Under the pieces are notes generated by a model, which was not told where the DNA came from, did not search any database, and was given only the letters and a program-made list of their open reading frames with translations. A DNA stretch of 64,000 nucleotides, from NCBI RefSeq assembly GCF_001644605.1, contig NZ_CP011388.1:452440-516439 (forward strand), in the 5' to 3' direction. Both the position numbers and the translations under genes were made by a program. Positions 2,035 to 48,478 of the stretch are shown one piece after another (position 1 is the stretch's first letter; each line of letters begins with the position of its first letter). Origin of the DNA: Paenibacillus swuensis. Lineage in GTDB: Bacteria > Bacillota > Bacilli > Paenibacillales > DY6.

Positions 2035-5000
2035 TTATCTCAACGTCTTCATGCTTTCATTCAATAAGGTAGTCTGTACATTCACCTGTTCTTGTGTGGC
2101 GGAGTCATTCTGCATAAGGGCATTGGCATTCCCAATTTGCAACGCAAGCGCTGATTTGCTTGCACCATTATAATAGCGCGGATTGCTGTACACCGCATTC
2201 GCGTTGGCAATGGCACTGCTGAGCGCATTTTTGAGCACTGGCACATTCGTCTGCGGCGTCCCGTCATAGACGCTGAATTCTAAAGCTGCGGTCCACGCTG
2301 TCCCTGGGGCTTTACCAAAAGTCAGCTTATAATAACGGCCACTGGAACTCACCTGATGCATCTGCTTCATCGCATAGCTTGTCGTGTTCAGTTGATCGAC
2401 AACAAGCCTCCACTGTGCAGTTGCCAATTTCGGGTCGTCATCGGTCGCTTCAATTTTGTACTTCCAGATCATTTCGGGCGTCGATGTCGTCATCACAACC
2501 TGTAGGGCAGACACTTCACGTACTGCGCCCAAATCCACATAGACGAAACGGCCAACGCCGCCTCCACCCCCATTCCACATCGTGGACAAGTCTCCGTCTA
2601 CAATGACTGACGCCGACTTCCCGTTGCTGTCCACGGTCGGTTGCTTTAACGCCAGGTTCTTCTGCACTTGCTTGGCATACACCTTGAACTCACTGATGGA
2701 AGCATATTTCGTGCTCGGTACGGCATCAAACCGCAGACGCACATAACGCGCCGTATGGCTGCCGATCGGGATGATTTCCTGAATACGAGCTGTTCCTGGT
2801 TCAGCAGAGATATCCGTATAAGTGACATCGTCGCTCGAAACTGAAATGGTATACGGCAGCATGGCTGCGTCATTTTCAAAGGCAATCTGGAAGCCTGCCA
2901 AATCGGTATTCGCGCCCAGGTCCACCTTCCACCACGGATTGCCGCCCGCTGACTGCGCTTTCCATGAGGTAAGAGTGTCATCGTCCAGCGCAAGACTGGC
3001 GTCGTTCGTGTTTCCAGAAGCAGCGGCCGCCTTGTACAGCGCGACATTATACGACTCGTTCGTCGAATTTCCATACAGCGTCAACTCGTTAATCCCTAAG
3101 CTACGTGCTGCCGATTGTGCCGGGGCATATACCCGCACATATCGTCCGACAGCGGATGTCTGGAAGCTTTCTACCGATCTCGCCGCGTCCTTCGTTTTAT
3201 CCACGATGGTCGTCCATGTCTTCTCATCACCGGATACTTCCACTTTGTAGGGAGCCGGCGTGCTCAGTTGAATTTTGCCGCCGGTGAGCGAGAAGTTCTC
3301 GCCAAGATCTACTTCAAGCCTTTCATCCCGGAGCGAGTTACTGGAACTCCAGGATGTCGAGACGCTGCCATCCACCGCCTTCAAGCCCGATAGCGTTGCT
3401 GTGGAGGCGAGTACTGTTTTACCTGCCGCGATATTGCTGGCTTGGGTAAGTTTGACTGCCTTCACAGCCTCATTCAGCCAAGTGACTTGCACATTCACCT
3501 GTTCTTGTGTGGCCGAGCCGTTCTGTATCAACGCAGCGGCAAGTCCGATTTGCGTTTCAAGCGCTGTTTTACTTGATGGACTGTAATACATATTGTTATA
3601 AACCACATTCGCGTTGTCGATGGCCTTGCTCAGCGCATATTTTTGTACCGTTGCATTCGTCTGCGGCGCACCGTCGAATATGCTGAATTCCAAAGCTGCG
3701 GTATAGGCAGTCCCCGGCGCTTGTCCAAAGGTCAGCTTATAATAACGGCCACTGGAACTCACCTGATGCATCTGCTTCATCGCATAGCTTGTCGTGTTCA
3801 GTTGATCGACAACAAGCCTCCACTGTGCAGTTGCCAATTTCGGGTCGTCATCGGTCGCTTCAATTTTGTACTTCCAGATCATTTCGGGCGTCGATGTCGT
3901 CATCACAACCTGTACGGCAGACACTTCACGTACTGCACCCAAATCCACATAGACGAAACGGCCGGCACCGCCTCCTCCCCCATTCCACATCGTGGACAAG
4001 TCTCCGTCTACAATGACTGACGCCGACTTCCCGTTGCTGTCCACGGTCGGTTGCTTTAACGCCAGGTTCTTCTGCAGTTGCTTGGCATACACCTTGAACT
4101 CACTGATGGAAGCATATTTCGTGCTCGGTACGGCATCAAACCGCAGACGCACATAACGCGCCGTATGGCTGCCGATCGGGATGATTTCCTGAATACGAGC
4201 TGTTCCTGGTTCAGCAGAGATATCCGTATAAGTGACATCGTCGCTCGAAACTGAAATGGTATACGGCAGCATGGCTGCGTCATTTTCAAAGGCAATCTGG
4301 AAGCCTGCCAAATCGGTATTCGCGCCCAGGTCCACCTTCCACCACGGATTGCCGCCCGCTGACTGCGCTTTCCATGAGGTAAGAGTGTCATCGTCCAGCG
4401 CAAGACTGGCGTCGTTCGTGTTTCCAGAAGCAGCGGCCGCCTTGTACAGCGCGACATTATACGACTCGTTCGTCGAATCGCCATACAGTGTCAACTCGTT
4501 GATTCCTAAGCTACGTGCTGCCGATTGTGCCGGGGCATACACCCGCACATATCGTCCGACAGCGGATGTCTGGAAGCTTTCTACCGATCTCGCCGCGTCC
4601 TTCGTTTTATCCACGATGGTCGTCCATGTCTTCTCATCACCGGATACTTCCATTTTGTAGGGAGCCGGCGTGCTCAGTTGAATTTTGCCGCCGGTGAGCG
4701 AGAAGTTCTCGCCAAGATCTACTTCAAGCCATTCATCCCGGAGCGAGTTACTGGAACTCCAGGATGTCGAGACGCTGCCATCCACCGCTTTCAAGCCCGA
4801 TAGCGTTGCTGTGGAGGCGAGTACTGTTTTACCTGCCGCGATATTCTCTTGCTCAATGCCATACAGTAGTTTCAAAATAGGCTGATACTTGTTATAAATT
4901 GCCGTAGCAACCTGTACCTCGTTCCCTGTGCCTACACTTGGGTAAACCTTCTTGTTTTTCGCCCATACTTGTGCAAAATCATAAACTTGATTATTAATCG

Positions 5001-7143
5001 CTGCAGTGTCAACTTTAGCGCCGCCGTTAAGCTCTGCTGTTATAGCGTTAATTAAAATCTCCCAGCGCGGCCTGTTATAATCGCTAAGCAGACCAGACCA
5101 TTGTTTGTTCGCATAGTTATCCAAACTGCTTTGTTGACCCTTGTTCGGCTGCCAGATCGTATTGGCGATCCGAACATTCTTGTCGTTGACCCATTTCTCG
5201 CTCTCAGTGGCTCCGAAGCTCTTGGCCTTCTCCAGCCAACGGCCCAGTGTCAGTTCCGTCCGTGTTCCGACGACTTGATCCATATCTATAAATACATCAA
5301 GGAACATATGCGAATATAGTTGGAAATCGGCGATATGTTTCTCGTTGTAAGCTTTGATCATACTAGCATAAATATCATTGGAAATGTCCGCCAAAACCTG
5401 TCTGGTCACGTCTACCAAATCGTACCGATACCCGTTAGAGCCCCCTACTTCAGCAGCCGCTTTAATCATGTCAGGCCAGGCTTTTAAAAAGTCGCTCAGC
5501 TTATATACAGGTTTGTTGGCCCCGTAGACTCTGGCCAAGTTTCCTGATCCCGTTGCTGTGCTGCTCACAGTAAGAGTAAGGGATGGCTTGGCGTTGATAA
5601 CGGACTGATGCGGGCCTTGATATGGATATTTTGAGTAAGAAGTCTTCTTCATAATGTCCCAAGCTTGCTCCGCATTACTGCTCTTCTGGCCATAACGGCG
5701 TTCGATATAGTCATGCATCCACAACTCTGCGTTAACCGGGGTATCATGCCAGCCCATTTCCGCCATCAATTGGTACATAATCGGATTGGTTTCCGAACCT
5801 TCCGGCGCGATGCTTATACCGATTAATCCGTTATTACGATTCATATTGAGGTCTTGTACAGGTGTGGTAGCAATTCGCTCCAAATTGCCGCCCATACCTT
5901 GATTGCCGCCAAAATTTTGTAGCATTCCCCAGGCATAATTCAGTCCGCCGAAGGGCCCTTTCTGCCTGTACTCCGCTTCCAGGTCAAGAATGAGTATATT
6001 TTTACGGTAAGGCGAATTGATCAACTCCGTCCTGAGTGCAGCATTCATGCTCCAAGATGTCATGCACCAGATGGAATCCGGGTTATACGCAACCATTTCT
6101 CCATACATATTATTGACGCTGGATAGATCAATGCCTGTTGGAAGCCCTGTCTCAAGCGCAAAGTCTGAGCTGTAAAATTTGGGTTTGAAACCCAGCACCT
6201 GCTCTTGTGTTGCAAAGAACTCCTGAGAGAACGCTTTGTAAAACGGATCCGTAGGGACAATGTACAGATTAGGCAGGCCTGGAACCGTCATCCTTGCATC
6301 CACATACTTCACCGGACTTCCGTTATAGGTAGGATTGGCATCCTTGACTTCACGCGGTACGACCCCGAAAAACATACGGACTGAAGGCTGTATACCGAGC
6401 GAGAGCGCTTGACTGGACACCGTCTTGGACAGGCTCAGGAAACGATCAATCATCCCGTCTGTCATCGGCTCGCCATGGCTGGCGTTATTGTTCATATTGC
6501 ACCAGGCCGGAGAACCGGCAAACCGTGATGCAGCCGTTTTGTCTATATTGAATTTCGGCAGCACCTCACGCCAGACAGCCTCCCAGCCAAGATAGTGAAG
6601 ATACACGTTGATGCCGTTCATCGCATACCAGTCAATTCGGTTTTGCCAGTCAGCCTCATCGTAAAACGCCGTCGTATACGATTCTACATCGTTTCCGTAC
6701 CAACGCCATTTGTAAGGCGAGACTACAACTTCTTTCGTAATATTGACAGGCAATTGTTCCGGCATGCTGACAGTGTTGTCCCCTGTCTTCGGAAACGCAT
6801 AATCCACTTTCACATACTTTTTCAAATATTTATTGAAAGCGCTTGCAACGGAATAGCCCTGATTGCCCCTCAAAATAATTTTGCCTGTTATCGAGTCATA
6901 ATCCAGTTCGTACACGTCTTGATTTGCAGCTGTTGTAATTTTCTCCAATTTAAAACGGTTAATGTCCAGATTCGGAGCTACGCGCAGCATTAATTCTTTG
7001 ACTGCCTGCTCTGCCTCAGCTTCCAGCTTCCCTCGCGTATAGCCATCACCCGTGTCCGCCGAACCTGTCAAGGGCAAGGCCAACTGAAACAACAAAACGA
7101 AGGTGAGCATGCTGACAATCATCTTGACACTCTTATTCATCAT
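2035..7143 (-). CDS. Secreted alpha-N-acetylglucosaminidase (GH89) with duplicated F5/8C-FIVAR modules
   Basis: A 1702-residue exported enzyme with an N-terminal signal peptide (cleavage near GSA-DTG). The GH89/NAGLU core covers about residues 40-760: an N-terminal domain, a TIM barrel (RWYGNDVESYTTAFYDEADW, NGINVYLHYLGWEAVW), the family motif MLQNFGGNQGM, and IAPEGSE, whose first Glu (about E448) aligns with the human NAGLU nucleophile. A Glu in FALETGL is a candidate acid/base. From about residue 767 there are two tandem copies of a 470-residue block, each with three F5/8 type C (CBM32-like) domains and one FIVAR domain. The family removes terminal alpha-GlcNAc, in bacteria mostly from host or microbial glycans. 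Start ATG-ATG is preceded by AAAGGGG. Its own promoter, with the shared operator, lies at 7182-7246. Confidence 0.9.
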   Translation of the reverse strand: MMNKSVKMIVSMLTFVLLFQLALPLTGSADTGDGYTRGKLEAEAEQAVKELMLRVAPNLDINRFKLEKITTAANQDVYELDYDSITGKIILRGNQGYSVASAFNKYLKKYVKVDYAFPKTGDNTVSMPEQLPVNITKEVVVSPYKWRWYGNDVESYTTAFYDEADWQNRIDWYAMNGINVYLHYLGWEAVWREVLPKFNIDKTAASRFAGSPAWCNMNNNASHGEPMTDGMIDRFLSLSKTVSSQALSLGIQPSVRMFFGVVPREVKDANPTYNGSPVKYVDARMTVPGLPNLYIVPTDPFYKAFSQEFFATQEQVLGFKPKFYSSDFALETGLPTGIDLSSVNNMYGEMVAYNPDSIWCMTSWSMNAALRTELINSPYRKNILILDLEAEYRQKGPFGGLNYAWGMLQNFGGNQGMGGNLERIATTPVQDLNMNRNNGLIGISIAPEGSETNPIMYQLMAEMGWHDTPVNAELWMHDYIERRYGQKSSNAEQAWDIMKKTSYSKYPYQGPHQSVINAKPSLTLTVSSTATGSGNLARVYGANKPVYKLSDFLKAWPDMIKAAAEVGGSNGYRYDLVDVTRQVLADISNDIYASMIKAYNEKHIADFQLYSHMFLDVFIDMDQVVGTRTELTLGRWLEKAKSFGATESEKWVNDKNVRIANTIWQPNKGQQSSLDNYANKQWSGLLSDYNRPRWEILINAITAELNGGAKVDTAAINNQVYDFAQVWAKNKKVYPSVGTGNEVQVATAIYNKYQPILKLLYGIEQENIAAGKTVLASTATLSGLKAVDGSVSTSWSSSNSLRDEWLEVDLGENFSLTGGKIQLSTPAPYKMEVSGDEKTWTTIVDKTKDAARSVESFQTSAVGRYVRVYAPAQSAARSLGINELTLYGDSTNESYNVALYKAAAASGNTNDASLALDDDTLTSWKAQSAGGNPWWKVDLGANTDLAGFQIAFENDAAMLPYTISVSSDDVTYTDISAEPGTARIQEIIPIGSHTARYVRLRFDAVPSTKYASISEFKVYAKQLQKNLALKQPTVDSNGKSASVIVDGDLSTMWNGGGGGAGRFVYVDLGAVREVSAVQVVMTTSTPEMIWKYKIEATDDDPKLATAQWRLVVDQLNTTSYAMKQMHQVSSSGRYYKLTFGQAPGTAYTAALEFSIFDGAPQTNATVQKYALSKAIDNANVVYNNMYYSPSSKTALETQIGLAAALIQNGSATQEQVNVQVTWLNEAVKAVKLTQASNIAAGKTVLASTATLSGLKAVDGSVSTSWSSSNSLRDERLEVDLGENFSLTGGKIQLSTPAPYKVEVSGDEKTWTTIVDKTKDAARSVESFQTSAVGRYVRVYAPAQSAARSLGINELTLYGNSTNESYNVALYKAAAASGNTNDASLALDDDTLTSWKAQSAGGNPWWKVDLGANTDLAGFQIAFENDAAMLPYTISVSSDDVTYTDISAEPGTARIQEIIPIGSHTARYVRLRFDAVPSTKYASISEFKVYAKQVQKNLALKQPTVDSNGKSASVIVDGDLSTMWNGGGGGVGRFVYVDLGAVREVSALQVVMTTSTPEMIWKYKIEATDDDPKLATAQWRLVVDQLNTTSYAMKQMHQVSSSGRYYKLTFGKAPGTAWTAALEFSVYDGTPQTNVPVLKNALSSAIANANAVYSNPRYYNGASKSALALQIGNANALMQNDSATQEQVNVQTTLLNESMKTLR
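2321..3435 (-). repeat. Second copy of tandem F5/8C module repeat inside the GH89 gene
   Basis: This 1115-bp stretch is nearly identical base for base to 3731-4845, at a constant offset of 1410 bp. The differences are scattered single bases. The flanking FIVAR-coding stretch (2035-2320 against 3445-3730) is homologous but clearly diverged, so identity drops sharply at the boundary. That pattern suggests recent duplication or gene conversion of the carbohydrate-binding part only. Confidence 0.95.
3731..4845 (-). repeat. First copy of tandem F5/8C module repeat inside the GH89 gene
   Basis: Partner of 2321-3435, offset 1410 bp. It encodes three consecutive discoidin-like domains directly after the GH89 helical domain. 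Identity begins abruptly where the sequence encoding NIAAGKTV starts (about residue 767) and holds until the FIVAR domain. Confidence 0.95.
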
Positions 7144-7181: not shown

Positions 7182-7246
7182 ATTGTACAAAGAATCAGGG
7201 GCGAGTTATATTGCTTAGTTTTGCAAAAAATGTTTGTATATTTTGT
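7182..7246 (-). promoter_or_regulatory. Operator and promoter of the GH89 gene (shared with 14847-14911)
   Basis: On the plus strand a 28-bp AT-rich element (7219-7246) begins TTTTG, contains AAAATGTTTG and ends TTTTGT. It aligns base for base with 14884-14911. On the minus strand exactly 31 nt separate the element from the -10 box TACAAT (7182-7187). There is no good -35 box, as expected for an activated promoter. The neighbouring YesN-type regulator (8599-9606) is the obvious candidate activator. Confidence 0.65.
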
Positions 7247-7270
7247 GAATTTGTAAATTAGACAGAGGTT

Positions 7271-8587
7271 CTATGAAACTTCTTTAAGCCACGCAATCGT
7301 TGCATCCAAAGAACGCTGTCCGTCCAGATACGCAACGGCTGCCTGTGTAAGTCGTTGTTCAAACTTTGGATCGATAAAATCGAGCTTGATGGGACGAATT
7401 GTTCCTTGCTGAAAGGCAAGCTGCATGGTGCGCATGTTCTCTTCCAGCGGCAGCCCATCCATATTCACATAACCGGCTGCAGGCGTTTGCAGCATGCTGA
7501 CCATCTTCTGCAGCGTGTCTTCCCGATACAAAAATGCGATAAACCGTCTGGCCTCCTCTTCATGCCTGGTATTCGCCGATACAGCAAACCCGACTGAACT
7601 GATGACGCGCACATCCTTCATTGTCTTCGTTTCGTTCAGAATTCCGTCTACACGCTTTAATTGGAACGTTTCCGGCAGATATGACGCCATTTCATTGCGA
7701 AGCCACATTCCGCTTGGAATATAAGCAATGTTGTGCGCCAACCATTCCTTTTGCGTATGTATATGGTTCATCTTGACCGGATATTTCAGTAATAACCCTA
7801 CTTGGGCGAGCTTCTCCAGTCTTTTCATATATCGCACAAAAACTTCGCTGTCATACAAGGCAGGATCAGCCGACAGCAGCTGTTGAGCAACCTGCTCTCC
7901 TCCCTCTGCAATTAAACCCGGAATGAGCAAGCCCCGAATTAGATACAATGGAAACTGTCCCGGGTATCCAATAAGGGCGATGCCATTCTTCTTCATTTCT
8001 CTCCCTGTTTCCAGAAGCGATGTAAAATCATCCAGCCCTCTCTTCATATAGCGGTCCAGCAAATGTTGGTCATACCACATGCCCCATGAAGTTAGCATAT
8101 ATGGCAAAATGTACAGTTTGTCTCCGTACCGTCCGATTGTCTCAGGCATGATGACCTCTCCCAGCGTTTGAGTGGGGGAAACCTCCAAGTTGTCCAGCCA
8201 TGCGCTCACTTCCTTGAATTTACCCTCCATCTGGAATAGAGCTTTGGGGAAATTCGCACCGTCCGTAAACACAAGATCTGGGGCATTCCCTGACAGCCAT
8301 TTCAGTTTCATCTGTTCGTTTACGTTATATCCAATATTGGCAGTCACTTTGATGTCCGGATTTTCTTTTTGAAATTGTTCGATAGCATCGCGCCAGAACG
8401 CACGGCCGTAACCGCCTTCAAATATTTGAAGCTCGATGGTTTTTTCAAGCGGTAATGCATCCGTGGTGTCCGTTTCTTTTGGAGCAGACAGCTCCAAATA
8501 GAGGTGAGAAATACCATATCCTGCACCGATTGTACAGATAATGAGAAGGATAAGCGCCAGGCTGACCGTCGTATACTGTCGTTTCAT
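7271..8587 (-). CDS. Membrane-anchored sugar-binding protein (SBP family 1), probable sensor partner
   Basis: A 438-residue family 1 extracellular solute-binding protein. It is a paralogue of the lipoprotein at 13414-14751: both have the pattern LQ-F-GGYG, then FQKENPD, then PDLVF-DG. The N-terminus has a hydrophobic segment (about residues 8-26) but no proper lipobox, and it looks like an uncleaved membrane anchor. The gene starts 11 nt after the response regulator gene and so belongs to the kinase-regulator operon, not to the permease operon. In Firmicutes such proteins can present ligand to a YesM-type kinase, so a sensing role is likely (inference). RBS GAGGGG is 7 nt before ATG. Confidence 0.8.
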   Translation of the reverse strand: MKRQYTTVSLALILLIICTIGAGYGISHLYLELSAPKETDTTDALPLEKTIELQIFEGGYGRAFWRDAIEQFQKENPDIKVTANIGYNVNEQMKLKWLSGNAPDLVFTDGANFPKALFQMEGKFKEVSAWLDNLEVSPTQTLGEVIMPETIGRYGDKLYILPYMLTSWGMWYDQHLLDRYMKRGLDDFTSLLETGREMKKNGIALIGYPGQFPLYLIRGLLIPGLIAEGGEQVAQQLLSADPALYDSEVFVRYMKRLEKLAQVGLLLKYPVKMNHIHTQKEWLAHNIAYIPSGMWLRNEMASYLPETFQLKRVDGILNETKTMKDVRVISSVGFAVSANTRHEEEARRFIAFLYREDTLQKMVSMLQTPAAGYVNMDGLPLEENMRTMQLAFQQGTIRPIKLDFIDPKFEQRLTQAAVAYLDGQRSLDATIAWLKEVS

Positions 8588-8598
8588 AATCTTTCCCC

Positions 8599-9606
8599 TC
8601 AGGTTCGCATCTGTTTGTAAACAGATGGTGTTATACCCGTATGTTTTTTGAAAAACTGGCTGAAGTAACGCTGATCCGGATACCCTACTTTTTCTCCGAT
8701 TTCGCCTATGGAATACTTCGTGTTGCGCATCAGCTTGGCCGCTTCACGAATGCGGATCCCGGCGATATAATCAGAATAATTCATCCCCGTTTCCTCTTTA
8801 AAGAGATTGCTTAAGTAAGAAATATTTACATAGAAGGTCTTTGCCAAACACGTTAAGGATAGATCCTCCTCCAGCCGTTCTTCCACATAACTTTTAATTT
8901 GTCTGATTAAAGCATTCTCATTATGTTCATGCAAGGTTAATAGTATCGTTTGCATCGTATGATCAAGAAGACACTGCATGTCCGCTGCCGAGATGCCGCC
9001 GGGAATGTCCGGATAAATATGATTGATGACATGCCCTCGTTCTTTGAAATAACATTCCTGGCCGAATCGTATCGATTGCCATATTTGGCGAACCTGGCTG
9101 TCGGGGGTGTTATATCGCTTAAAAAAAACGAACAGGTCCCGAATCAAGTCCTCAACAGCAGGAAGGTCATTGTTCTCAAGCGCGCATTTCAATTTGCTCT
9201 CCAGTTCATACGGAAAGGGAATGTTGTTTTCTTGTTTGATTTCTTTTACACGGATGAGCGTTTCGATGAGAAGCTCCGCATCAATCGGCTTTAATAAGTA
9301 ATCCAGCACTTGGTTGCGCAAGCTTTTCTGAATATATTCAAAATCATCGTAACCCGTCAGGACAATGACATTCGTAGCCGTGAAGGTCTTGTTGATTTCC
9401 TTCGACAGCTCGATCCCGTCCATACCGGGCATCATCAAATCTGTAATGACCAAATCTACAGAGTGCTCATGCAAAAACTCTAGCGCGGCTTCCCCGTCCT
9501 CCGCTTGGGCAATGACCTGCCAACCGAGCTTCTCCCAATCAATTAACTTTTGTAAGCCCAGCCTGATCAAGGGCTCGTCATCAATCAGCATTACTGTTAG
9601 CATCAT
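8599..9606 (-). CDS. YesN-type response regulator with AraC DNA-binding domain
   Basis: A 335-residue two-component regulator. The N-terminal receiver domain (residues 4-120) has the acidic pair DDE, the phospho-acceptor D56 in VITDLMMPGMDG, a conserved Thr (VLTGYDD) and Lys (LLKP). The C-terminal AraC/XylS domain (about 230-335) has two helix-turn-helix units, the second with GYPDQRYFSQFFKKHTG. Its start ATG-ATG follows AAAGGGGG. It is encoded 43 nt after the kinase and 11 nt before the second binding protein. It most likely activates the promoters at 7182-7246 and 14847-14911, which share an operator. Confidence 0.92.
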   Translation of the reverse strand: MMLTVMLIDDEPLIRLGLQKLIDWEKLGWQVIAQAEDGEAALEFLHEHSVDLVITDLMMPGMDGIELSKEINKTFTATNVIVLTGYDDFEYIQKSLRNQVLDYLLKPIDAELLIETLIRVKEIKQENNIPFPYELESKLKCALENNDLPAVEDLIRDLFVFFKRYNTPDSQVRQIWQSIRFGQECYFKERGHVINHIYPDIPGGISAADMQCLLDHTMQTILLTLHEHNENALIRQIKSYVEERLEEDLSLTCLAKTFYVNISYLSNLFKEETGMNYSDYIAGIRIREAAKLMRNTKYSIGEIGEKVGYPDQRYFSQFFKKHTGITPSVYKQMRT

Positions 9607-9649
9607 CCATCCCCCTTTGGCAGTTCTACGGCGATTTGCAAAATTTTAC

Positions 9650-11455
9650 TCATCCATACATGCTTGCTGACCTTGCCGGTAACTTGAGTTCCACACAAGT
9701 CCCCTCATGGTGAGTGCTGTTAATTTGCATACCGTAGGCTGTCCCGAATATGAGTTGAATCCGGCTTTGTACATTTTGCAATCCGATATGCTCTCCATGA
9801 AGCTTGGCATCCTTGTCCTCAAGAGCTCTCCTTACATGATGGAGTCGCTCTTCATTCATACCGGCACCGTTATCCTTGACGTAAATATGCAAATTTCCAT
9901 GAAGCAGTTCCGCAGTCAGTTGTAGCAATACCTTTCCTTTTTTCTTCTCTATGCCATGCTGTAACGCATTCTCAACAATCGGCTGTAACGTTAGCTTCAG
10001 CACTTGGCATGACATGGAGGCTGGTGAAGCATGGATCTCCACTTCAAATTTGTCTTGGTAGCGCATTTTTTGCAAATAGAGATAGTGGGTCACATGAGTG
10101 ATTTCTTTCTCAAGGGTGACAAAATCATCAGTGCCACTAATACTGTAGCGCAGCATTTTGGCAAGGGAGGTTACACTGCCAGCAATCTCGGTTTCGTCGT
10201 TGATCACAGCCTGCATACGAATGGTTTCCAATGTGTTATAGAGAAAATGGGGATTTATTTTACTTTTCAATGCTTCCATCTCAGCAATTTTGCGTTGCAT
10301 GTCAATATTTCTGTTGGTCTCAATCAATCCGCCGATTCTGCAGACGAGCTCATTAAAGTTGCCTGCCAATTCTCCCAGTTCGTTTTTGCCCTGTGCCGGT
10401 ACTGTCACAGTCAGGTCTCCCTCCTGAGCCCGTTTCATCGCAGCACGCATCTTCCGGATCGGAAGCACAATACTCTTGGCAATCATGGCCGAGCATAGGA
10501 CAGCAAGCAATAGAATCGCTACGGCCAATATGACGAACAACACGATTGTCATAGTTCCCATTTGCGTTACTTCGATGTAAGGCAGCATGCATACGACGCG
10601 GAACCCGGTTTTGGATGAAACATTCTGTACGTACAAATACTTTGTTCCCATAAATTCGACGACATGGCTTCCATTGGTTTGTTTCTGAAGTCGGGAAATC
10701 AACTGTGTTTCCCAACCTTTTTCGAGATTGTTTTCGGCAGCGTACAGCATTTGGTCACTGCCTGTAAGAACGAACCAGAAACCGTTGCTGCCTACCTGTG
10801 TATCATTGGCAATCCGGTCCAGTACGTTTAAATTGCAGTAGAGCAGCAAATAGCCAATATAATAGCCGGAATTAAAATCCAATAGCTTGCGTGCCACAGA
10901 AAATACGGGAGTCGGCGGTGCGAATTGAAAGTCAGCGATATGTTTAGGCAGCACCACGGTTTCACCGTGGGAGCGTAAGAGCGGTTCTAACATTTCTTCT
11001 TCTAAATAGAGATTGTTCATTCTTACCGGCCCATAAATGCTTTTCGTATATGTTTTATCGTCGTTGGAAATGATCGAAATAAAATCGATATTATCGGTCA
11101 CTGTCAGCACATCATCCAGAAACGTGTCGATAGCTTGTACAGCCTGTGAAACCGTTTTTCCCCGCGACGAAGAATTTTCCATGATTTGAATGAGATGGTT
11201 CTGAAGCTCCTGATTGTTGTAGCTCATATACGAAATCGTTTCCATTTCCCGCAAATACTCATTAAGTGAAATATTAATATGTTTAGCAAGCTGCGTCGTT
11301 CCCGCCGTCACTTCCGTCTTGATCTGAGCCATCTGTATAAAGAATAAAACGCTGCCAAAGAGCAGCAGCGGAAATAGGATACAGGCGGAATACATAATCA
11401 TCAGCTTCGGCTGCATCTGGATATCGTGAAACAAAGATTGCCAGTAGCGCTTCAC
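9650..11455 (-). CDS. YesM-type sensor histidine kinase
   Basis: A 601-residue membrane kinase. Transmembrane segments lie near residues 20-40 and 275-305 and bracket an extracellular sensor domain. A HAMP domain (IVLPIRKMRAAMKRAQEGDL) follows, then the His_kinase domain with the phospho-acceptor in INPHFLYNTLE (about H403). The ATPase domain has the N box VENALQHGIEKK and the G1 box DNGAGM. I chose a GTG start at 11455 because GGGAGG lies 6 nt upstream and the promoter at 11527-11554 leaves a 65-nt leader; the open frame upstream offers only a TTG inside that promoter. It pairs with the regulator at 8599-9606. Confidence 0.9.
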   Translation of the reverse strand: MKRYWQSLFHDIQMQPKLMIMYSACILFPLLLFGSVLFFIQMAQIKTEVTAGTTQLAKHINISLNEYLREMETISYMSYNNQELQNHLIQIMENSSSRGKTVSQAVQAIDTFLDDVLTVTDNIDFISIISNDDKTYTKSIYGPVRMNNLYLEEEMLEPLLRSHGETVVLPKHIADFQFAPPTPVFSVARKLLDFNSGYYIGYLLLYCNLNVLDRIANDTQVGSNGFWFVLTGSDQMLYAAENNLEKGWETQLISRLQKQTNGSHVVEFMGTKYLYVQNVSSKTGFRVVCMLPYIEVTQMGTMTIVLFVILAVAILLLAVLCSAMIAKSIVLPIRKMRAAMKRAQEGDLTVTVPAQGKNELGELAGNFNELVCRIGGLIETNRNIDMQRKIAEMEALKSKINPHFLYNTLETIRMQAVINDETEIAGSVTSLAKMLRYSISGTDDFVTLEKEITHVTHYLYLQKMRYQDKFEVEIHASPASMSCQVLKLTLQPIVENALQHGIEKKKGKVLLQLTAELLHGNLHIYVKDNGAGMNEERLHHVRRALEDKDAKLHGEHIGLQNVQSRIQLIFGTAYGMQINSTHHEGTCVELKLPARSASMYG

Positions 11456-11526
11456 AGGTGTCCTCCCGTCTCCTGTATAATGGAATAGCCGTCGGCCGTA
11501 AATCGGGTATTTAATCCGGCAGGTCA

Positions 11527-11554
11527 ATTATATGATAGAAATGTTACCAAACAA
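11527..11554 (-). promoter_or_regulatory. Promoter of the kinase-regulator-sensor operon
   Basis: On the minus strand TTGTTT (11549-11554) is followed after 16 nt by TATAAT (11527-11532). It lies in the gap between the permease gene and the kinase, so the signalling genes can be expressed independently of the transporter. Confidence 0.55.
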
Positions 11555-11593
11555 CCTCTAGAAAAGATAGTATGATTTACTTGTTTATGTGAA

Positions 11594-12445
11594 TCACCCT
11601 TTGACGCCGCTTCCCATCGACATCCCATCCTGCAGCTGTTTCTGAAAAAAGCCATATAGCACTAATACAGGCAGCATAGCGATGGTTAATCCGGCGAATA
11701 AGGCGCCGTAATCGGTACGATATTGCATGGCTGTAGATAAGAATGAGATCCCGATGGGAATCGTAAATTTCTCCTCTTCCGAAATGAACGTGATGGCAAT
11801 CGGGTACTCGTTCCAAAAGTTAATTACATTTACAATAGCGGCTATTACTATACCCGGCTTAACCAAAGGTAAGGCGACCCTAATAAACATTTGATAATAC
11901 GAAGCTCCGTCCAGTACGCTTGCTTCCATTAAGGAATGCGGAATCGCTTTGAAAAATCCGCTCAATAAAAACAGCGTAAAGGGGACTTGCAACACAGCAT
12001 AAATGATAATAATCCCGGTCAGACTGTTCGTCATGTGCAAAGCTTGGGCTTGAAAGAACAACGGCACCAGCAGCAGAATAGAAGGAATCATCATTCCTGC
12101 CGTATAGACGAACCCCATGATTTTTGAACCCATGAAGCGAAACCGGGACAAGGCAAACGCTGAGGTAGACGCCATCAAGAGGACCAGCACCAATGCGCCA
12201 GCCACTACCAAAAAACTGTTCATAAAATACAAGTAAAATTTGGAGGAGAACCAGGCGTTGTAATAGTTGATCCACTGCGGTGAAGCAGGCAGCGACCAAG
12301 GGTCTGCAAAAAATTCCGCATTTGTCTTCAGCGAAGAATTTAATACCCACAGCAGCGGCAAAAGCACCGTCAAGGCGCTCAGCAGAAGGAACAGCCGGAG
12401 TACGATCCCTTGTGTTTTTTTCCAAACGATATTGTTTTCTGCCAT
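11594..12445 (-). CDS. Sugar ABC transporter permease, MalG/CUT1 type
   Basis: A 283-residue inner-membrane protein with six predicted hydrophobic segments. The EAA-loop motif EASVLDGASYYQMFIRVALP contacts the ATPase subunit. It starts 2 nt after the stop codon of the upstream permease, with GAGGAG 8 nt before the ATG, so the two are translated together. It should form a heterodimer with the 12448-13356 product. No ATPase gene is present in the locus; an MsmX-type shared ATPase encoded elsewhere is likely, as in many Firmicutes CUT1 systems. Confidence 0.9.
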   Translation of the reverse strand: MAENNIVWKKTQGIVLRLFLLLSALTVLLPLLWVLNSSLKTNAEFFADPWSLPASPQWINYYNAWFSSKFYLYFMNSFLVVAGALVLVLLMASTSAFALSRFRFMGSKIMGFVYTAGMMIPSILLLVPLFFQAQALHMTNSLTGIIIIYAVLQVPFTLFLLSGFFKAIPHSLMEASVLDGASYYQMFIRVALPLVKPGIVIAAIVNVINFWNEYPIAITFISEEEKFTIPIGISFLSTAMQYRTDYGALFAGLTIAMLPVLVLYGFFQKQLQDGMSMGSGVKG

Positions 12446-12447
12446 CT

Positions 12448-13356
12448 TTATAACTCCTCGCTATTTCGTTCCAGTACGCGCTTAACCAATAAAGCCAAAC
12501 CTGTTGAAATGATAAGCAGAATGACTGCTGCAGCGCTTGCGTAACCTACACGGTTGGAAGCAAAGGCGAAGCGGTAAATATACGACCCCATGACTTCCGA
12601 CTGATAATTTGGTCCGCCGCCCGTGGTGGACATAATAATAACAAAATTCAAATTCAACGTGGTGTAGAGCACTGTAATAATGACAAATTTAATTTGTTCC
12701 ATAATTAGCGGCAAGGTGATCTGGAATAGCTGACGTGTCTCACTTGCGCCGTCGATTCTCGCAGCCTCGTAAATTTCTTCGGGAACATCGTTGATGGCAG
12801 CAATAATCGTAATCATAAACAATCCGATACCCGCCCATGATGCAATCATAATGACAGACGGGATGACCGTTTTGTATTCACCCAGCCAGGCATGGGTCCA
12901 GCTCTCGAAGCCAACCAGCTTAAGCAGCTCGTTCACAAATCCGTTATTCGGCTGCAATACAAAAGACCACAATATACCGATTACCACTACGGAGATCACG
13001 CATGGCAGGAACAACACGAAGCGGTAGAAGCCCGCCTCTTTCTTTGAAATCAACTTTCGTGTCAATAAAGCGGCAAGCAGCACAGCCAATGCTAAAATGA
13101 GTATCTCCTTACCCAGAAGGATCAACATATCGTTCATAATAGATTCTTTAAAAATGGGATCCTTGAACAATTCCATATAATTCTGTAAGCCAACGAACGT
13201 GCGGACATCCGAATAACCCGACCATTCGTACAAACTTGTTTTGATGCCTGAATATAAAGGGATGATTGCAAATATTACATACAGTGCAAACGTGGGAACT
13301 GTAAACAGCAGCAAAAATCTGCTTCGGGCACCATTTCTTATATCTAACTTATTCAT
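12448..13356 (-). CDS. Sugar ABC transporter permease, MalF/UgpA type
   Basis: A 302-residue membrane protein with six hydrophobic segments and the EAA motif YEAARIDGASETRQLFQITLP. It begins at an ATG with AAGGAGAG 5 nt upstream; an in-frame ATG ten codons earlier has no ribosome binding site and would overlap the intercistronic hairpin. It follows the binding lipoprotein gene across a 57-nt gap containing that hairpin. It is the partner of the MalG-type permease directly downstream. Confidence 0.9.
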   Translation of the reverse strand: MNKLDIRNGARSRFLLLFTVPTFALYVIFAIIPLYSGIKTSLYEWSGYSDVRTFVGLQNYMELFKDPIFKESIMNDMLILLGKEILILALAVLLAALLTRKLISKKEAGFYRFVLFLPCVISVVVIGILWSFVLQPNNGFVNELLKLVGFESWTHAWLGEYKTVIPSVIMIASWAGIGLFMITIIAAINDVPEEIYEAARIDGASETRQLFQITLPLIMEQIKFVIITVLYTTLNLNFVIIMSTTGGGPNYQSEVMGSYIYRFAFASNRVGYASAAAVILLIISTGLALLVKRVLERNSEEL

Positions 13357-13376
13357 AAACACTCTCCTTGGAAAAA

Positions 13377-13404
13377 TATCCTGCAAACCGGGGTTTGCAG
13401 GATA
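13377..13404 (-). terminator. Intercistronic hairpin between binding protein and permeases
   Basis: A perfect 12-bp inverted repeat (ATCCTGCAAACC pairing with GGTTTGCAGGAT) is followed on the minus strand by ATTTTTCC. A hairpin here would lower permease expression relative to the binding protein by partial termination or 3'-end stabilisation, a common arrangement in ABC sugar operons. Confidence 0.7.
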
Positions 13405-13413
13405 CGAAAGAAA

Positions 13414-14751
13414 TTACCTTACTTTTACCGCCTCTTGTTCAGCGCTTTCAGCTACACTATCCACTGTCGCTTCGCCGAGAATAATCGCATTGACTCCGTT
13501 TCGAAGCACATCCTCGACTTGTTGAGGAATGTTACGCGGCTGCGGTACGACAGCAACGTTGCTGTCGGCAAGCCAATTCTGTACGCTCTTGGTGCTGTCT
13601 GCCACATTCAAATTTGAAATATCAATATTTAGTGCCGCAGGGGAACCTGTCATCTCTACAAAACGTTTCACATTCTCTTCGCGGTACAGGTAACCCAGGA
13701 AAGCAAGCGCCGCCTCTTTGTTTTTGGCTTTAGAGGAGATTGCTATATTGATGCTGTTCACGCCGACAGCATAAGGCTGCCCGGCATCCTGCATCACGGA
13801 TGGAATGAATTTCATATTAAAGCCGGAGGGAATATCCTTCTTCATCTCCGACTCTAGCCATAATCCGTTCGGAATAAGTGCCGCGTTATGGTTAAGCCAC
13901 TCCATTTGCGATTGCGTATGATTGAGCGCCACCGTGCCGTTCAAGAAGTAGCCTGCTTTTGCGAGCTTTTCATATTTAGTCAACGCTTTCTTAAATGCAG
14001 GGCTTGTAAAGACGCCGGGCTTGAGGGAAACAGCATCTTGCAGCAGCGTACCGCCTTCAGAAATCAACTGCTGATACAACGTGCCTCTTAGCAAGTATTG
14101 GTATTGACCGGCAAAGTCCATCAAGCTTACTTTCTGCTTCTTTAGCTGCTCTCCCAGTGCCATCAGTTCATCGAAGTTGGAAGGAACCTTCAGGTTATTA
14201 TCGGTAAAGTATTTGTCATCGTACCAAGTCCCCCATGTACTAAGGATGTACGGAGCGCGGTACACTTCTTTATTCTCATCCACGAGACCCTTCATAATTG
14301 AATCTTTCACAAGCTTTCCTTCACTGATGGCAGCGCTGCTGTAGAAGCTGCGCAGATCCAGAAACTGCCCGTCCGCCTCCATCGCATCCCAAGCCAGATC
14401 GGGGCCGTCCAGAAAGACTAAATCCGGCGTATCTTCTCCCAGCCAGCGGGTTTTCATCGTTGCATTAATTTGCGCGCCCATATTCTTTTTGATTTTAAGA
14501 TCTGGATTTTCCTTTTGGAAGCCGTCGATCATTTCGTTCCACCATGCATCGCCATAACCGCCTACAAAAACTTGAAGCTCCAGATTACCGCTCAATCCTT
14601 TGGAGGCAGTCTCGCCAGATGCGTTCTCCGTCGGCGTGTTCGTTGAAACCTTGGAATTTTCCGCAGATTTCGTACTGCACCCGGTAAACAGCATTGCGCT
14701 TACAAGTACGGTTGTCATAACCGTTGTGATCATTCGGAACCCCTTTTTCAT
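13414..14751 (-). CDS. Sugar-binding lipoprotein of CUT1 ABC transporter (SBP family 1)
   Basis: A 445-residue extracellular binding protein. The signal peptide ends in lipobox LFTGC (C25), followed by a Ser/Thr/Asn-rich linker. The body is homologous to the membrane-anchored binding protein at 7271-8587. The start ATG at 14751 has AGAGGG 7 nt upstream; a TTG two codons earlier is less likely. It heads the transport operon with the two permeases. Its promoter at 14847-14911 carries the same operator as the GH89 gene, so importer and enzyme should respond to the same signal. The substrate is plausibly an alpha-GlcNAc-containing sugar or the released GlcNAc disaccharide (inference). Confidence 0.9.
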   Translation of the reverse strand: MKKGFRMITTVMTTVLVSAMLFTGCSTKSAENSKVSTNTPTENASGETASKGLSGNLELQVFVGGYGDAWWNEMIDGFQKENPDLKIKKNMGAQINATMKTRWLGEDTPDLVFLDGPDLAWDAMEADGQFLDLRSFYSSAAISEGKLVKDSIMKGLVDENKEVYRAPYILSTWGTWYDDKYFTDNNLKVPSNFDELMALGEQLKKQKVSLMDFAGQYQYLLRGTLYQQLISEGGTLLQDAVSLKPGVFTSPAFKKALTKYEKLAKAGYFLNGTVALNHTQSQMEWLNHNAALIPNGLWLESEMKKDIPSGFNMKFIPSVMQDAGQPYAVGVNSINIAISSKAKNKEAALAFLGYLYREENVKRFVEMTGSPAALNIDISNLNVADSTKSVQNWLADSNVAVVPQPRNIPQQVEDVLRNGVNAIILGEATVDSVAESAEQEAVKVR

Positions 14752-14846
14752 TGCCAATCCCTCTCTTTTGTAGACGCTTTCGCACCTTGTTAACGTTATG
14801 GAACCGTCAGTAGTTATCCCTTGCCGATTCCAACGTTTCTACTCTA

Positions 14847-14911
14847 ATCATAAATTTGCAGGCGATTTGGAGAAACCATCGGATTTTGTATAAAATGTTT
14901 GATTATTTTGT
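14847..14911 (-). promoter_or_regulatory. Operator and promoter of the transport operon (shared with 7182-7246)
   Basis: The 28-bp element at 14884-14911 matches 7219-7246 at roughly three quarters of positions, including AAAATGTTTG and TTTTGT. The -10 box TATGAT (14847-14852) follows after exactly 31 nt, the same spacing as at the GH89 promoter. The operator overlaps the stop codon of the oxidoreductase gene ending at 14903. Confidence 0.65.
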
Positions 14912-16997: not shown

Positions 16998-17098
16998 GTT
17001 TCTAATAATAACGATAAAGGCTTTCGGCTATTTTAAACATGACGCCATTTATCTCATTACTATTCATATTTGTTCCAGCTCGAATCGGAGGGATTCGC

Positions 17099-18001
17099 AT
17101 GAAGAATTTGAAGGAGCCGATCTACTACCAAAGTCCGCTGCTCAGCCTGAAAGTATCCTCCTTCGTCGTTTCCCACGGAGAGCAGACAGTAGATCGTCCA
17201 TGGCATTATCATAAAGAATTGGAGTTCATCCTTGTTCGGCAAGGACATCTTGAATGTTTAACGACCGAGCAGGTGTATACCTTGAACCAAGGCGACGTTT
17301 TGCTGCTGGGATCCTCTCAACTTCACCATACTAGAAAGATTGGAGATCAAACCCTGGACCATATCGTGCTTCATATAGATCTTGAATCCTACTACGAGCC
17401 TGCTATGATGATGTATTTCCCGTATTTTTCGGAGCTCCATGCGCCTCTCAGTGTACTCAATTATATTTTCCAGGAAAATCAGCTGGTGAAGGAAGAAATT
17501 TCGCGTACGATCCTACTTATCTATGAAGAAATGCATACCAAAACGATAGGCTATGAAATGGCGGCAAACATGCATGTCCGACAGCTGCTTCTGCTTCTGC
17601 TGAGAAGCGATCATGGCTTAAAGTTGCGCGGATACGACAGGATGGATGCTGCCATCTTCCGCCAGGTTACCGACTTCATTGACGATCATTTGTCCGACAA
17701 AATTGAAATGGAGCGCGTCTGCTCCCTTGTCAATATGAGCTACTCTTATTTCTCCCGCTATTTCAAACAAGCCGTCGGGATGTCTTTCACCGAATTCGTC
17801 AACTTGAAGCGAATCAAAAAAGCCGAACGGCTGCTCGTGACGAAAAAATCCAGCATTACCGAAATCGCCTCCCTGGTAGGTATTGAGAATATGGCGCATT
17901 TCTATAAGCTGTTCAAGCGCTTTAACGGGTGCACGCCCAAGGAGTATATGAATAGATTGAGAACGCGTGGAGGGCTGCCGCAAGTAATAAGCAATTCGTG
18001 A
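17099..18001 (+). CDS. AraC-family transcriptional regulator with cupin sensor domain
   Basis: A 300-residue regulator. The N-terminal cupin-like domain (about 15-150) contains RPWHYHKELEFILVRQGH. The C-terminal AraC domain (about 195-295) has two helix-turn-helix units, ending with GIENMAHFYKLFKRFNGCTPKEY. The start at 17099 has GGAGGG 6 nt upstream; an in-frame ATG 20 codons earlier lacks an RBS. It is divergent from the two Gfo/Idh/MocA genes and probably activates them in response to a sugar. Confidence 0.9.
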   Translation: MKNLKEPIYYQSPLLSLKVSSFVVSHGEQTVDRPWHYHKELEFILVRQGHLECLTTEQVYTLNQGDVLLLGSSQLHHTRKIGDQTLDHIVLHIDLESYYEPAMMMYFPYFSELHAPLSVLNYIFQENQLVKEEISRTILLIYEEMHTKTIGYEMAANMHVRQLLLLLLRSDHGLKLRGYDRMDAAIFRQVTDFIDDHLSDKIEMERVCSLVNMSYSYFSRYFKQAVGMSFTEFVNLKRIKKAERLLVTKKSSITEIASLVGIENMAHFYKLFKRFNGCTPKEYMNRLRTRGGLPQVISNS

Positions 18002-40247: not shown

Positions 40248-40309
40248 ATCTTAAGACAGTTGCCGGGGGGCGGTAAGAACAATATTTTTACCTTCGGATA
40301 CTTTCTTGC
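40248..40309 (-). promoter_or_regulatory. Regulon operator and promoter of the enzyme operon
   Basis: The 28-bp element (40282-40309) begins GCAAGA-AGTAT on the minus strand and ends GTAAAAATAT. It is identical to 48333-48360 at 24 of 28 positions. The -10 box TAAGAT (40248-40253) follows after exactly 28 nt. No -35 consensus is present, as expected for an activator-dependent promoter. Confidence 0.7.
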
Positions 40310-40324
40310 CGTGTCTCTCTTGAA

Positions 40325-48298: not shown

Positions 48299-48360
48299 AT
48301 CATATATTGACTGAAAACGGTTACATAGGATGATATTTTTACTTTCGAATACTATCTTGT
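48299..48360 (-). promoter_or_regulatory. Regulon operator and promoter of the giant enzyme gene
   Basis: The 28-bp element (48333-48360) reads CAAGATAGTAT at its upstream end and GTAAAAATAT at its downstream end on the minus strand. The -10 box TATGAT (48299-48304) follows after exactly 28 nt, as at 40248-40309 and 33463-33524. Confidence 0.72.
48312..48325. promoter_or_regulatory. Perfect cre site (CcpA binding) in the giant enzyme promoter
   Basis: TGAAAACGGTTACA matches the consensus TGWAANCGNTNWCA at every defined position. It lies between the activator element and the -10 box, so bound CcpA should block transcription when preferred sugars are present. Confidence 0.75.
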
Positions 48361-48478
48361 CACTTTGCGACAAGCGTCTTGTCGTAATATAAATAGGCCC
48401 GGTCTATGGACCGAACCTTGCTCTACGTATGAGATTTCAACAGTTACGCCATCGATGATGCACCACTTTGTCCACCTA

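What the first reader, a model, noticed from the sequence alone, without database searches (positions are those of the whole stretch)
7182..14911. A second shared operator links the GH89 gene to a transport operon
Seen directly: 28-bp elements at 7219-7246 and 14884-14911 match at about three quarters of positions, and both are followed by a -10 box after exactly 31 nt. This operator differs from that of the other YesN regulon. It predicts that the YesM/YesN pair at 8599-11455 switches on uptake and GH89 together.
Basis: partly seen in the sequence, partly recalled or inferred. Interest (0 to 1): 0.7.

Follow-up and report, generated by a model that had tools for sequence, protein, structure and literature searches.

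The report
Two-site operator for GlcNAc-glycan uptake regulon
Two nearly identical promoter elements, found nowhere else in this bacterium's genome, sit in front of a sugar-import operon and a neighbouring glycan-cutting enzyme gene, so one adjacent sensor/regulator pair probably switches on both; this is a tidy new example of a well-known arrangement rather than a new kind of system.

Summary
The two 28-bp elements match at 24/28 positions, and each lies exactly 31 nt before a -10-like hexamer (TACAAT, TATGAT) with no usable -35. In the 5.01-Mb genome these are the only two sites: the 28-mer with up to 3 mismatches finds nothing else. The elements contain CAAAA/CAAAC/CAAAA boxes at -58/-49/-36 from the -10, a 22-bp direct repeat such as AraC-type response regulators use. 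They precede an SBP-permease-permease-YesM-YesN-SBP2 operon and the adjacent GH89 gene. Both SBPs best match the GlcNAc/chitobiose (NgcE) family, below its cut-off, and both GH89 catalytic Glu are present. In the only ortholog found (G405, YesN about 38% identical) the promoter keeps the distal half (AAAA-N3-ACAAAC) 51 versus 50 nt from -10, but not the full element, and GH89 is absent. YesN control is well supported but undemonstrated; the proximal half also fits the UP-element consensus (13-14/15), and another regulator is possible. GH89 ends the same co-directional run with no terminator before it, so its site looks like a second, internal promoter. New member of a known kind (CuaDSR/CuaABC, pneumococcal TCS07).

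The parts
14884..14911 (-). Element 2: ACAAAATAATCAAACATTTTATACAAAA, upstream of the transport operon; its first 9 nt overlap the last 3 codons (stop included) of the preceding oxidoreductase ORF
14847..14852 (-). -10-like hexamer TATGAT, 31 nt after element 2; best -35 match 3/6
13414..14757 (-). SBP1, lipoprotein solute-binding protein of the ABC importer; best NCBIfam match NgcE (GlcNAc/diacetylchitobiose), below cut-off; probable ATG start 6 nt inside the listed TTG
12448..13386 (-). ABC permease 1 (BPD_transp_1)
11594..12445 (-). ABC permease 2 (BPD_transp_1)
9650..11527 (-). YesM-type sensor kinase (weak dCache-like sensor region, HAMP, His_kinase, HATPase_c); GTG start at 11455 likely
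8599..9606 (-). YesN-type response regulator, 335 aa (receiver with LVITDLMMPGMDG, C-terminal AraC double HTH)
7271..8587 (-). SBP2, paralogue of SBP1 (31% identity) without a lipobox cysteine and with a hydrophobic N-terminus; candidate sensor SBP for YesM
7219..7246 (-). Element 1: ACAAAATATACAAACATTTTTTGCAAAA, between the SBP2 stop and the GH89 start
7182..7187 (-). -10-like hexamer TACAAT, 31 nt after element 1; best -35 match 3/6
2035..7143 (-). GH89 alpha-N-acetylglucosaminidase, 1702 aa, probably secreted (N-terminal signal-like stretch), several discoidin (CBM32-like) domains; Glu equivalents of CpGH89 E483 and E601 present
6834..6847 (+). cre-like site TGAAAGCGCTTGCA (14/14 to consensus) about 300 bp inside GH89: possible CcpA roadblock
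   Evidence: function inferred

Best explanation
The two elements are the operator of the neighbouring YesN-type response regulator. An extracellular GlcNAc-containing ligand, sensed by YesM probably with SBP2 as a co-sensor, leads to phosphorylation of YesN. YesN-P then binds as a tandem dimer to two half-sites about 22 bp apart (CAAAA/CAAAC distal, CAAAA proximal) ending just upstream of the -35 position, and recruits RNA polymerase to promoters that lack a usable -35. This activates (i) SBP1-permease-permease-YesM-YesN-SBP2, giving positive feedback, and (ii) GH89 from a second, internal promoter. Uptake and extracellular release of GlcNAc thus rise together. Shown: element identity, spacing, genome-wide uniqueness, gene content, absent -35s. 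Inferred: YesN binding, activation, ligand, the SBP2 role and any CcpA override.
For: Elements 24/28 identical versus a shuffle maximum of 21. Only two copies in 5.01 Mb. CAAA boxes at identical positions -58/-49/-36 from -10 in both. Shared -10 offset p about 0.004 and -35 matches of at most 3/6. Intact YesM/YesN lie between the sites. SBP1 and SBP2 both best match NgcE (221 and 154 bits; cut-off 399.65), and GH89 has both catalytic Glu, so the substrate logic is consistent. In ortholog G405, with YesM-YesN-SBP1-permease-permease synteny, the SBP1 promoter holds CTAAAAGAAACAAAC, the best distal-half match of 19,887 plus-strand positions of that locus, with ACAAAC to -10 at 51 versus 50 nt, although the gene upstream differs (YesN there, an oxidoreductase here). 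HTH1 helices are alike (SYLSNLFKEETG / SYLSQLFKSETG). The window's other YesMN system has its own 24/28 pair at a fixed 29 nt.
Against: No binding or expression data. Only one ortholog was found in the genomes sampled (395 of the order, 396 of family f11, 399 of the class, overlapping sets), and its proximal half is not conserved (full 28-mer rank 6); it has no GH89 beside it and no second site. The regulator assignment rests on proximity; the genome has many AraC/receiver paralogs (235 first-look candidates). The proximal half also fits the UP-element consensus.
Confidence: 0.68

Rival explanations
1. The elements are AT-rich UP elements contacted by the RNA-polymerase alpha C-terminal domain, giving two constitutively strengthened promoters without a dedicated regulator.
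For: Against the UP consensus NNAAAWWTWTTTTNNAAAANNN (from general knowledge) the sites score 14/15 and 13/15, among the six best matches in the 64-kb window.
Against: The match sits about 3 bp upstream of the canonical UP position. The distal ACAAAATA, 8/8 identical, lies outside the UP consensus. Both promoters lack a usable -35. The G405 ortholog keeps the distal part, not the UP-like part. The shared sequence is unique genome-wide, whereas UP elements would grade into many promoters.
Confidence: 0.12
2. The sites form a shared operator, but for another regulator: the AraC-type protein at 17039-18001 or an unlinked paralog.
For: AraC-family and receiver genes are abundant in this genome, one AraC gene lies 2-3 kb away, and AraC-type operators look alike.
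Against: The YesM/YesN genes lie between the two sites and inside the controlled operon. No third site occurs near the 17039 AraC gene or anywhere else in the genome. G405 keeps YesMN next to SBP1 and a partial element.
Confidence: 0.13
3. The co-regulation is real but mostly trivial (not exclusive with the best explanation): GH89 is transcribed by read-through from the transport operon, and the element before GH89 adds little.
For: All genes from SBP1 to GH89 run the same way, gaps are short, and no terminator-like hairpin lies between SBP2 and GH89.
Against: A 24/28 element with a -10 at identical spacing, and a short leader with a GAAAGGGG ribosome-binding site, lies directly before GH89.
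Confidence: 0.25
4. Chance similarity of two AT-rich intergenic segments.
For: Both are A/T rich.
Against: 0 of 500 shuffles reach 24/28; genome-wide uniqueness; shared -10 offset.
Confidence: 0.02

Closest known systems
CuaDSR three-component system and cuaABC-cbpA operon, Ruminiclostridium cellulolyticum (PMC10384115)
   Same: Importer SBP plus two permeases, with a second SBP gene adjacent to a sensor kinase and a YesN/AraC response regulator; the regulator triggers the importer operon. CuaD binds CuaS as a co-sensor.
   Different: Cellobiose rather than a GlcNAc-type ligand; CuaR is 538 aa versus 335 here; CuaD is a lipoprotein while SBP2 here has no lipobox; no GH89.
TCS07 (YesMN) host-glycan regulon, Streptococcus pneumoniae (PMC7075642)
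   Same: A YesMN-type pair switches on genes for host-glycan metabolism, including glycosidases.
   Different: Different enzymes (EndoD, StrH, GH92, GH29 and others). No RR07 consensus was found in 2020; a 2024 candidate is CTWWWWWWAG (PMC11034029), unlike this element.
XydS/XydR, Clostridium cellulolyticum (PMC3572039)
   Same: AraC-type response regulator activating a linked glycosidase cluster, with binding to DNA upstream of target genes.
   Different: The binding region was only bracketed by EMSA, with no defined operator; xydSR is reported not to be self-regulated.
CpGH89 of Clostridium perfringens (PDB 2vc9, 4a4a, 7mfk)
   Same: GH89 catalytic domain and both catalytic Glu; carbohydrate-binding modules.
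   Different: Different module order; regulation in that organism not examined here.

Membership tests
YesM/YesN (AraC-type response regulator) ABC-transport regulon | Receiver domain plus C-terminal AraC HTH, next to a His_kinase/HAMP sensor | tested here: met
   Response_reg 1.6e-28, HTH_18 7.1e-22; His_kinase 4.9e-27, HAMP 3.8e-13
YesM/YesN (AraC-type response regulator) ABC-transport regulon | Linked SBP plus two BPD_transp_1 permeases | tested here: met
YesM/YesN (AraC-type response regulator) ABC-transport regulon | Operator of tandem half-sites about 21-22 bp apart just upstream of the -35 position of target promoters | tested here: inconclusive
   Boxes at -58 and -36 from -10 in both promoters; the proximal inner box is not conserved between sites; binding not measured
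YesM/YesN (AraC-type response regulator) ABC-transport regulon | The cognate YesN binds and activates the target promoters | not testable with these tools
   needs EMSA/footprint and a deletion strain
Three-component (SBP-kinase-regulator) sensing, CuaDSR/XylFII type | Second SBP gene adjacent to the kinase/regulator genes | tested here: met
   SBP2 at 7271-8587 next to yesN, 31% identical to SBP1
Three-component (SBP-kinase-regulator) sensing, CuaDSR/XylFII type | Second SBP binds the kinase sensor domain | not testable with these tools
   not measured
NgcE GlcNAc/diacetylchitobiose SBP | TIGR03851 score above the equivalog cut-off (399.65) | tested here: not met
   SBP1 221, SBP2 154 bits; best match but not an equivalog
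GH89 alpha-N-acetylglucosaminidase | NAGLU N, TIM-barrel and C domains with the two catalytic Glu | tested here: met
   residue numbers E483/E601 of CpGH89 from general knowledge
RNA-polymerase UP element | Consensus match at -59 to -38 upstream of a -35/-10 promoter | tested here: inconclusive
   14/15 and 13/15 but about 3 bp upstream of the canonical register; no -35

The most novel reading that the evidence does not exclude
YesN-family regulators each own a private, very small regulon read by a half-site code set by their recognition helices: two or so sites per genome, one on the importer operon and one on the key secreted enzyme, at a rigid distance from a -35-less promoter. The two YesMN systems in this one window (31-nt and 29-nt spacings, unrelated sequences) would be the first two entries of such a code.
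Probability: 0.25. Interest if true: 0.5.

Novelty: new member of a known kind. Interest (0 to 1): 0.33.

Why it matters
YesM/YesN-type genes are very numerous in this group (200-600 first-look candidates per large genome), yet their DNA sites are almost undefined; published attempts in pneumococcus and C. cellulolyticum gave none or a weak consensus (PMC7075642, PMC11034029, PMC3572039). A genome-unique, two-copy operator with fixed spacing gives a testable site for one such regulator, and suggests a simple way to find others: compare promoters flanking each YesMN cluster within one genome. It also links an alpha-GlcNAc-ase (GH89) to a probable GlcNAc-glycan importer.

Tried and rejected
Closer orthologs: genus and family hold only this genome; samples of 395 order genomes, 396 genomes of the large related family f11 and 399 class genomes (overlapping sets) gave one ortholog, G405. 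The relatives search appears to have returned the same order sample, so it added little. Genome contigs with SBP1 gave only distant transporters; L004 (37% SBP) has no full YesN beside it. GH89 relatives in f11 are only 30-35% identical and were not used for the promoter. The other YesN hits (L017-L019) lack the matching transporter context. A second element in G405 was sought with its own promoter sequence, <=3 mismatches: none. A third site in this genome: none. Plasmid records: none. Alignment rows for L013-L015 were read in the wrong orientation and were ignored.

Full report
What is there. On the minus strand, 7219-7246 reads ACAAAATATACAAACATTTTTTGCAAAA and 14884-14911 reads ACAAAATAATCAAACATTTTATACAAAA: 24 of 28 identical, better than the 'three quarters' reported. 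In 500 dinucleotide shuffles of the two upstream regions the best 28-mer match averaged 17.1 and never exceeded 21. Each is followed after exactly 31 nt by a -10-like hexamer (TACAAT, TATGAT). A shared offset with both hexamers at >=5/6 appears in 0.4% of base shuffles, and neither promoter has a -35 better than 3/6 at a 16-18-nt spacer. CAAA boxes lie at -58, -49 and -36 from the -10 in both.

Uniqueness. In the whole 5,012,599-bp genome the core pattern matches only these two places, with 0 in the reversed control. The 28-mer with up to 3 mismatches also finds only these two. A looser 17-position version finds these two at 0 mismatches, none at 1 or 2, and 24 others at 3 mismatches; the control pattern gives 30 hits, so those are background. 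The regulon, if real, has two sites.

Genes. The sites bracket a co-directional set: SBP1, two BPD permeases, a YesM-type kinase, a YesN-type regulator, SBP2, then GH89. SBP1 has a lipobox. SBP2 is a 31% paralogue without one and with a hydrophobic N-terminus. Both best match NCBIfam NgcE, the GlcNAc/diacetylchitobiose SBP (221 and 154 bits, cut-off 399.65), so a GlcNAc-type ligand is suggested, not established. The 1702-aa GH89 protein aligns with CpGH89 (E about 1e-100), with both catalytic Glu equivalents present (residue numbers from general knowledge). Element 2 overlaps the end of an upstream oxidoreductase gene. Element 1 lies in the 127-bp gap between SBP2 and GH89, with no terminator-like hairpin there, so GH89 may also be reached by read-through.

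Orthologs. This genome is alone in its genus and family in the collection. Only one ortholog was found in the genomes sampled (395 of the order, 396 of the related family f11, 399 of the class; the sets overlap): G405, with YesM-YesN-SBP1-permease-permease (SBP1 43%, permeases 48% and 57%, YesN about 38% identical). It has no GH89 beside this cluster and no GH89 hit in the genome at E <= 1e-60. Before SBP1 it carries CTAAAAGAAACAAAC...TATAAT. The distal 15 nt rank first of 19,887 plus-strand positions in that locus against the two-site profile; the full 28 ranks sixth. ACAAAC lies 51 nt before the -10 there, 50 nt here. The gene upstream differs between the two genomes, which argues that the element travels with the SBP1 promoter. 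No second copy exists in G405.

Mechanism. Two boxes 22 bp apart, ending just upstream of the -35 position of a -35-less promoter, is the layout expected from an AraC-type double-HTH activator acting as a tandem dimer (general knowledge of the AraC family). The best reading is that phosphorylated YesN activates both promoters, giving positive feedback on its own operon and co-induction of GH89. SBP2 may serve as co-sensor, as CuaD does for CuaS (PMC10384115). cre-like sequences inside GH89 (6834-6847, 14/14) and, weaker, in the SBP1 leader (14769-14782, 12/14) suggest CcpA override; this is inference.

Rivals. The proximal 20 nt score 14/15 and 13/15 against the UP-element consensus, among the best in the window. 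But the register is about 3 bp off, the identical distal ACAAAATA lies outside the consensus, -35s are absent, and G405 keeps the distal rather than the UP-like part. Another AraC-type regulator could own the sites; the yesMN genes lying between the sites and inside the regulated set make YesN most likely.

Compared with known systems. It works like CuaDSR-cuaABC and pneumococcal TCS07. TCS07 workers found no consensus in 2020 (PMC7075642) and a different candidate in 2024 (PMC11034029), and XydR sites were only bracketed (PMC3572039). So the specific operator is new, the kind is not.

A parallel in the window. The only other 24/28 pair of upstream elements belongs to the second YesMN system (40283-40310 and 48334-48361, both 29 nt before a -10). 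That supports the idea that each YesN has a private pair of sites.

Noticed in passing
40283-40310 and 48334-48361, minus strand: Second 24/28 element pair (GGCAAGAAAGTATCCGAAGGTAAAAATA / GACAAGATAGTATTCGAAAGTAAAAATA), both 29 nt before a -10, in front of the creatininase-like gene heading the other YesMN cluster and of a 1346-aa secreted protein.
   Followed up: partly
48312-48325: cre-like site TGTAACCGTTTTCA between that operator and its -10.
   Followed up: no
2243-3449 and 3653-4859: GH89 carries an internal tandem duplication (offset 1410 bp, about 1.2 kb at 96% identity), duplicating discoidin modules; recent, or kept alike by recombination.
   Followed up: partly
6834-6847: Perfect cre consensus about 300 bp inside the GH89 coding region.
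   Followed up: no
14769-14842: SBP1 leader can fold into a hairpin (AACGTTGGAA...TTCCATAACGTT, z -2.1) next to a 12/14 cre-like site.
   Followed up: no
7271-8587: SBP2 has a hydrophobic N-terminus and no lipobox, unlike SBP1: possible membrane-anchored sensor SBP.
   Followed up: partly
L016:13622-16630: In G405 the gene following the orthologous permeases encodes a 1002-aa protein with only an FlgD_ig-like match above cut-off in Pfam, in the place where an enzyme might be expected.
   Followed up: no
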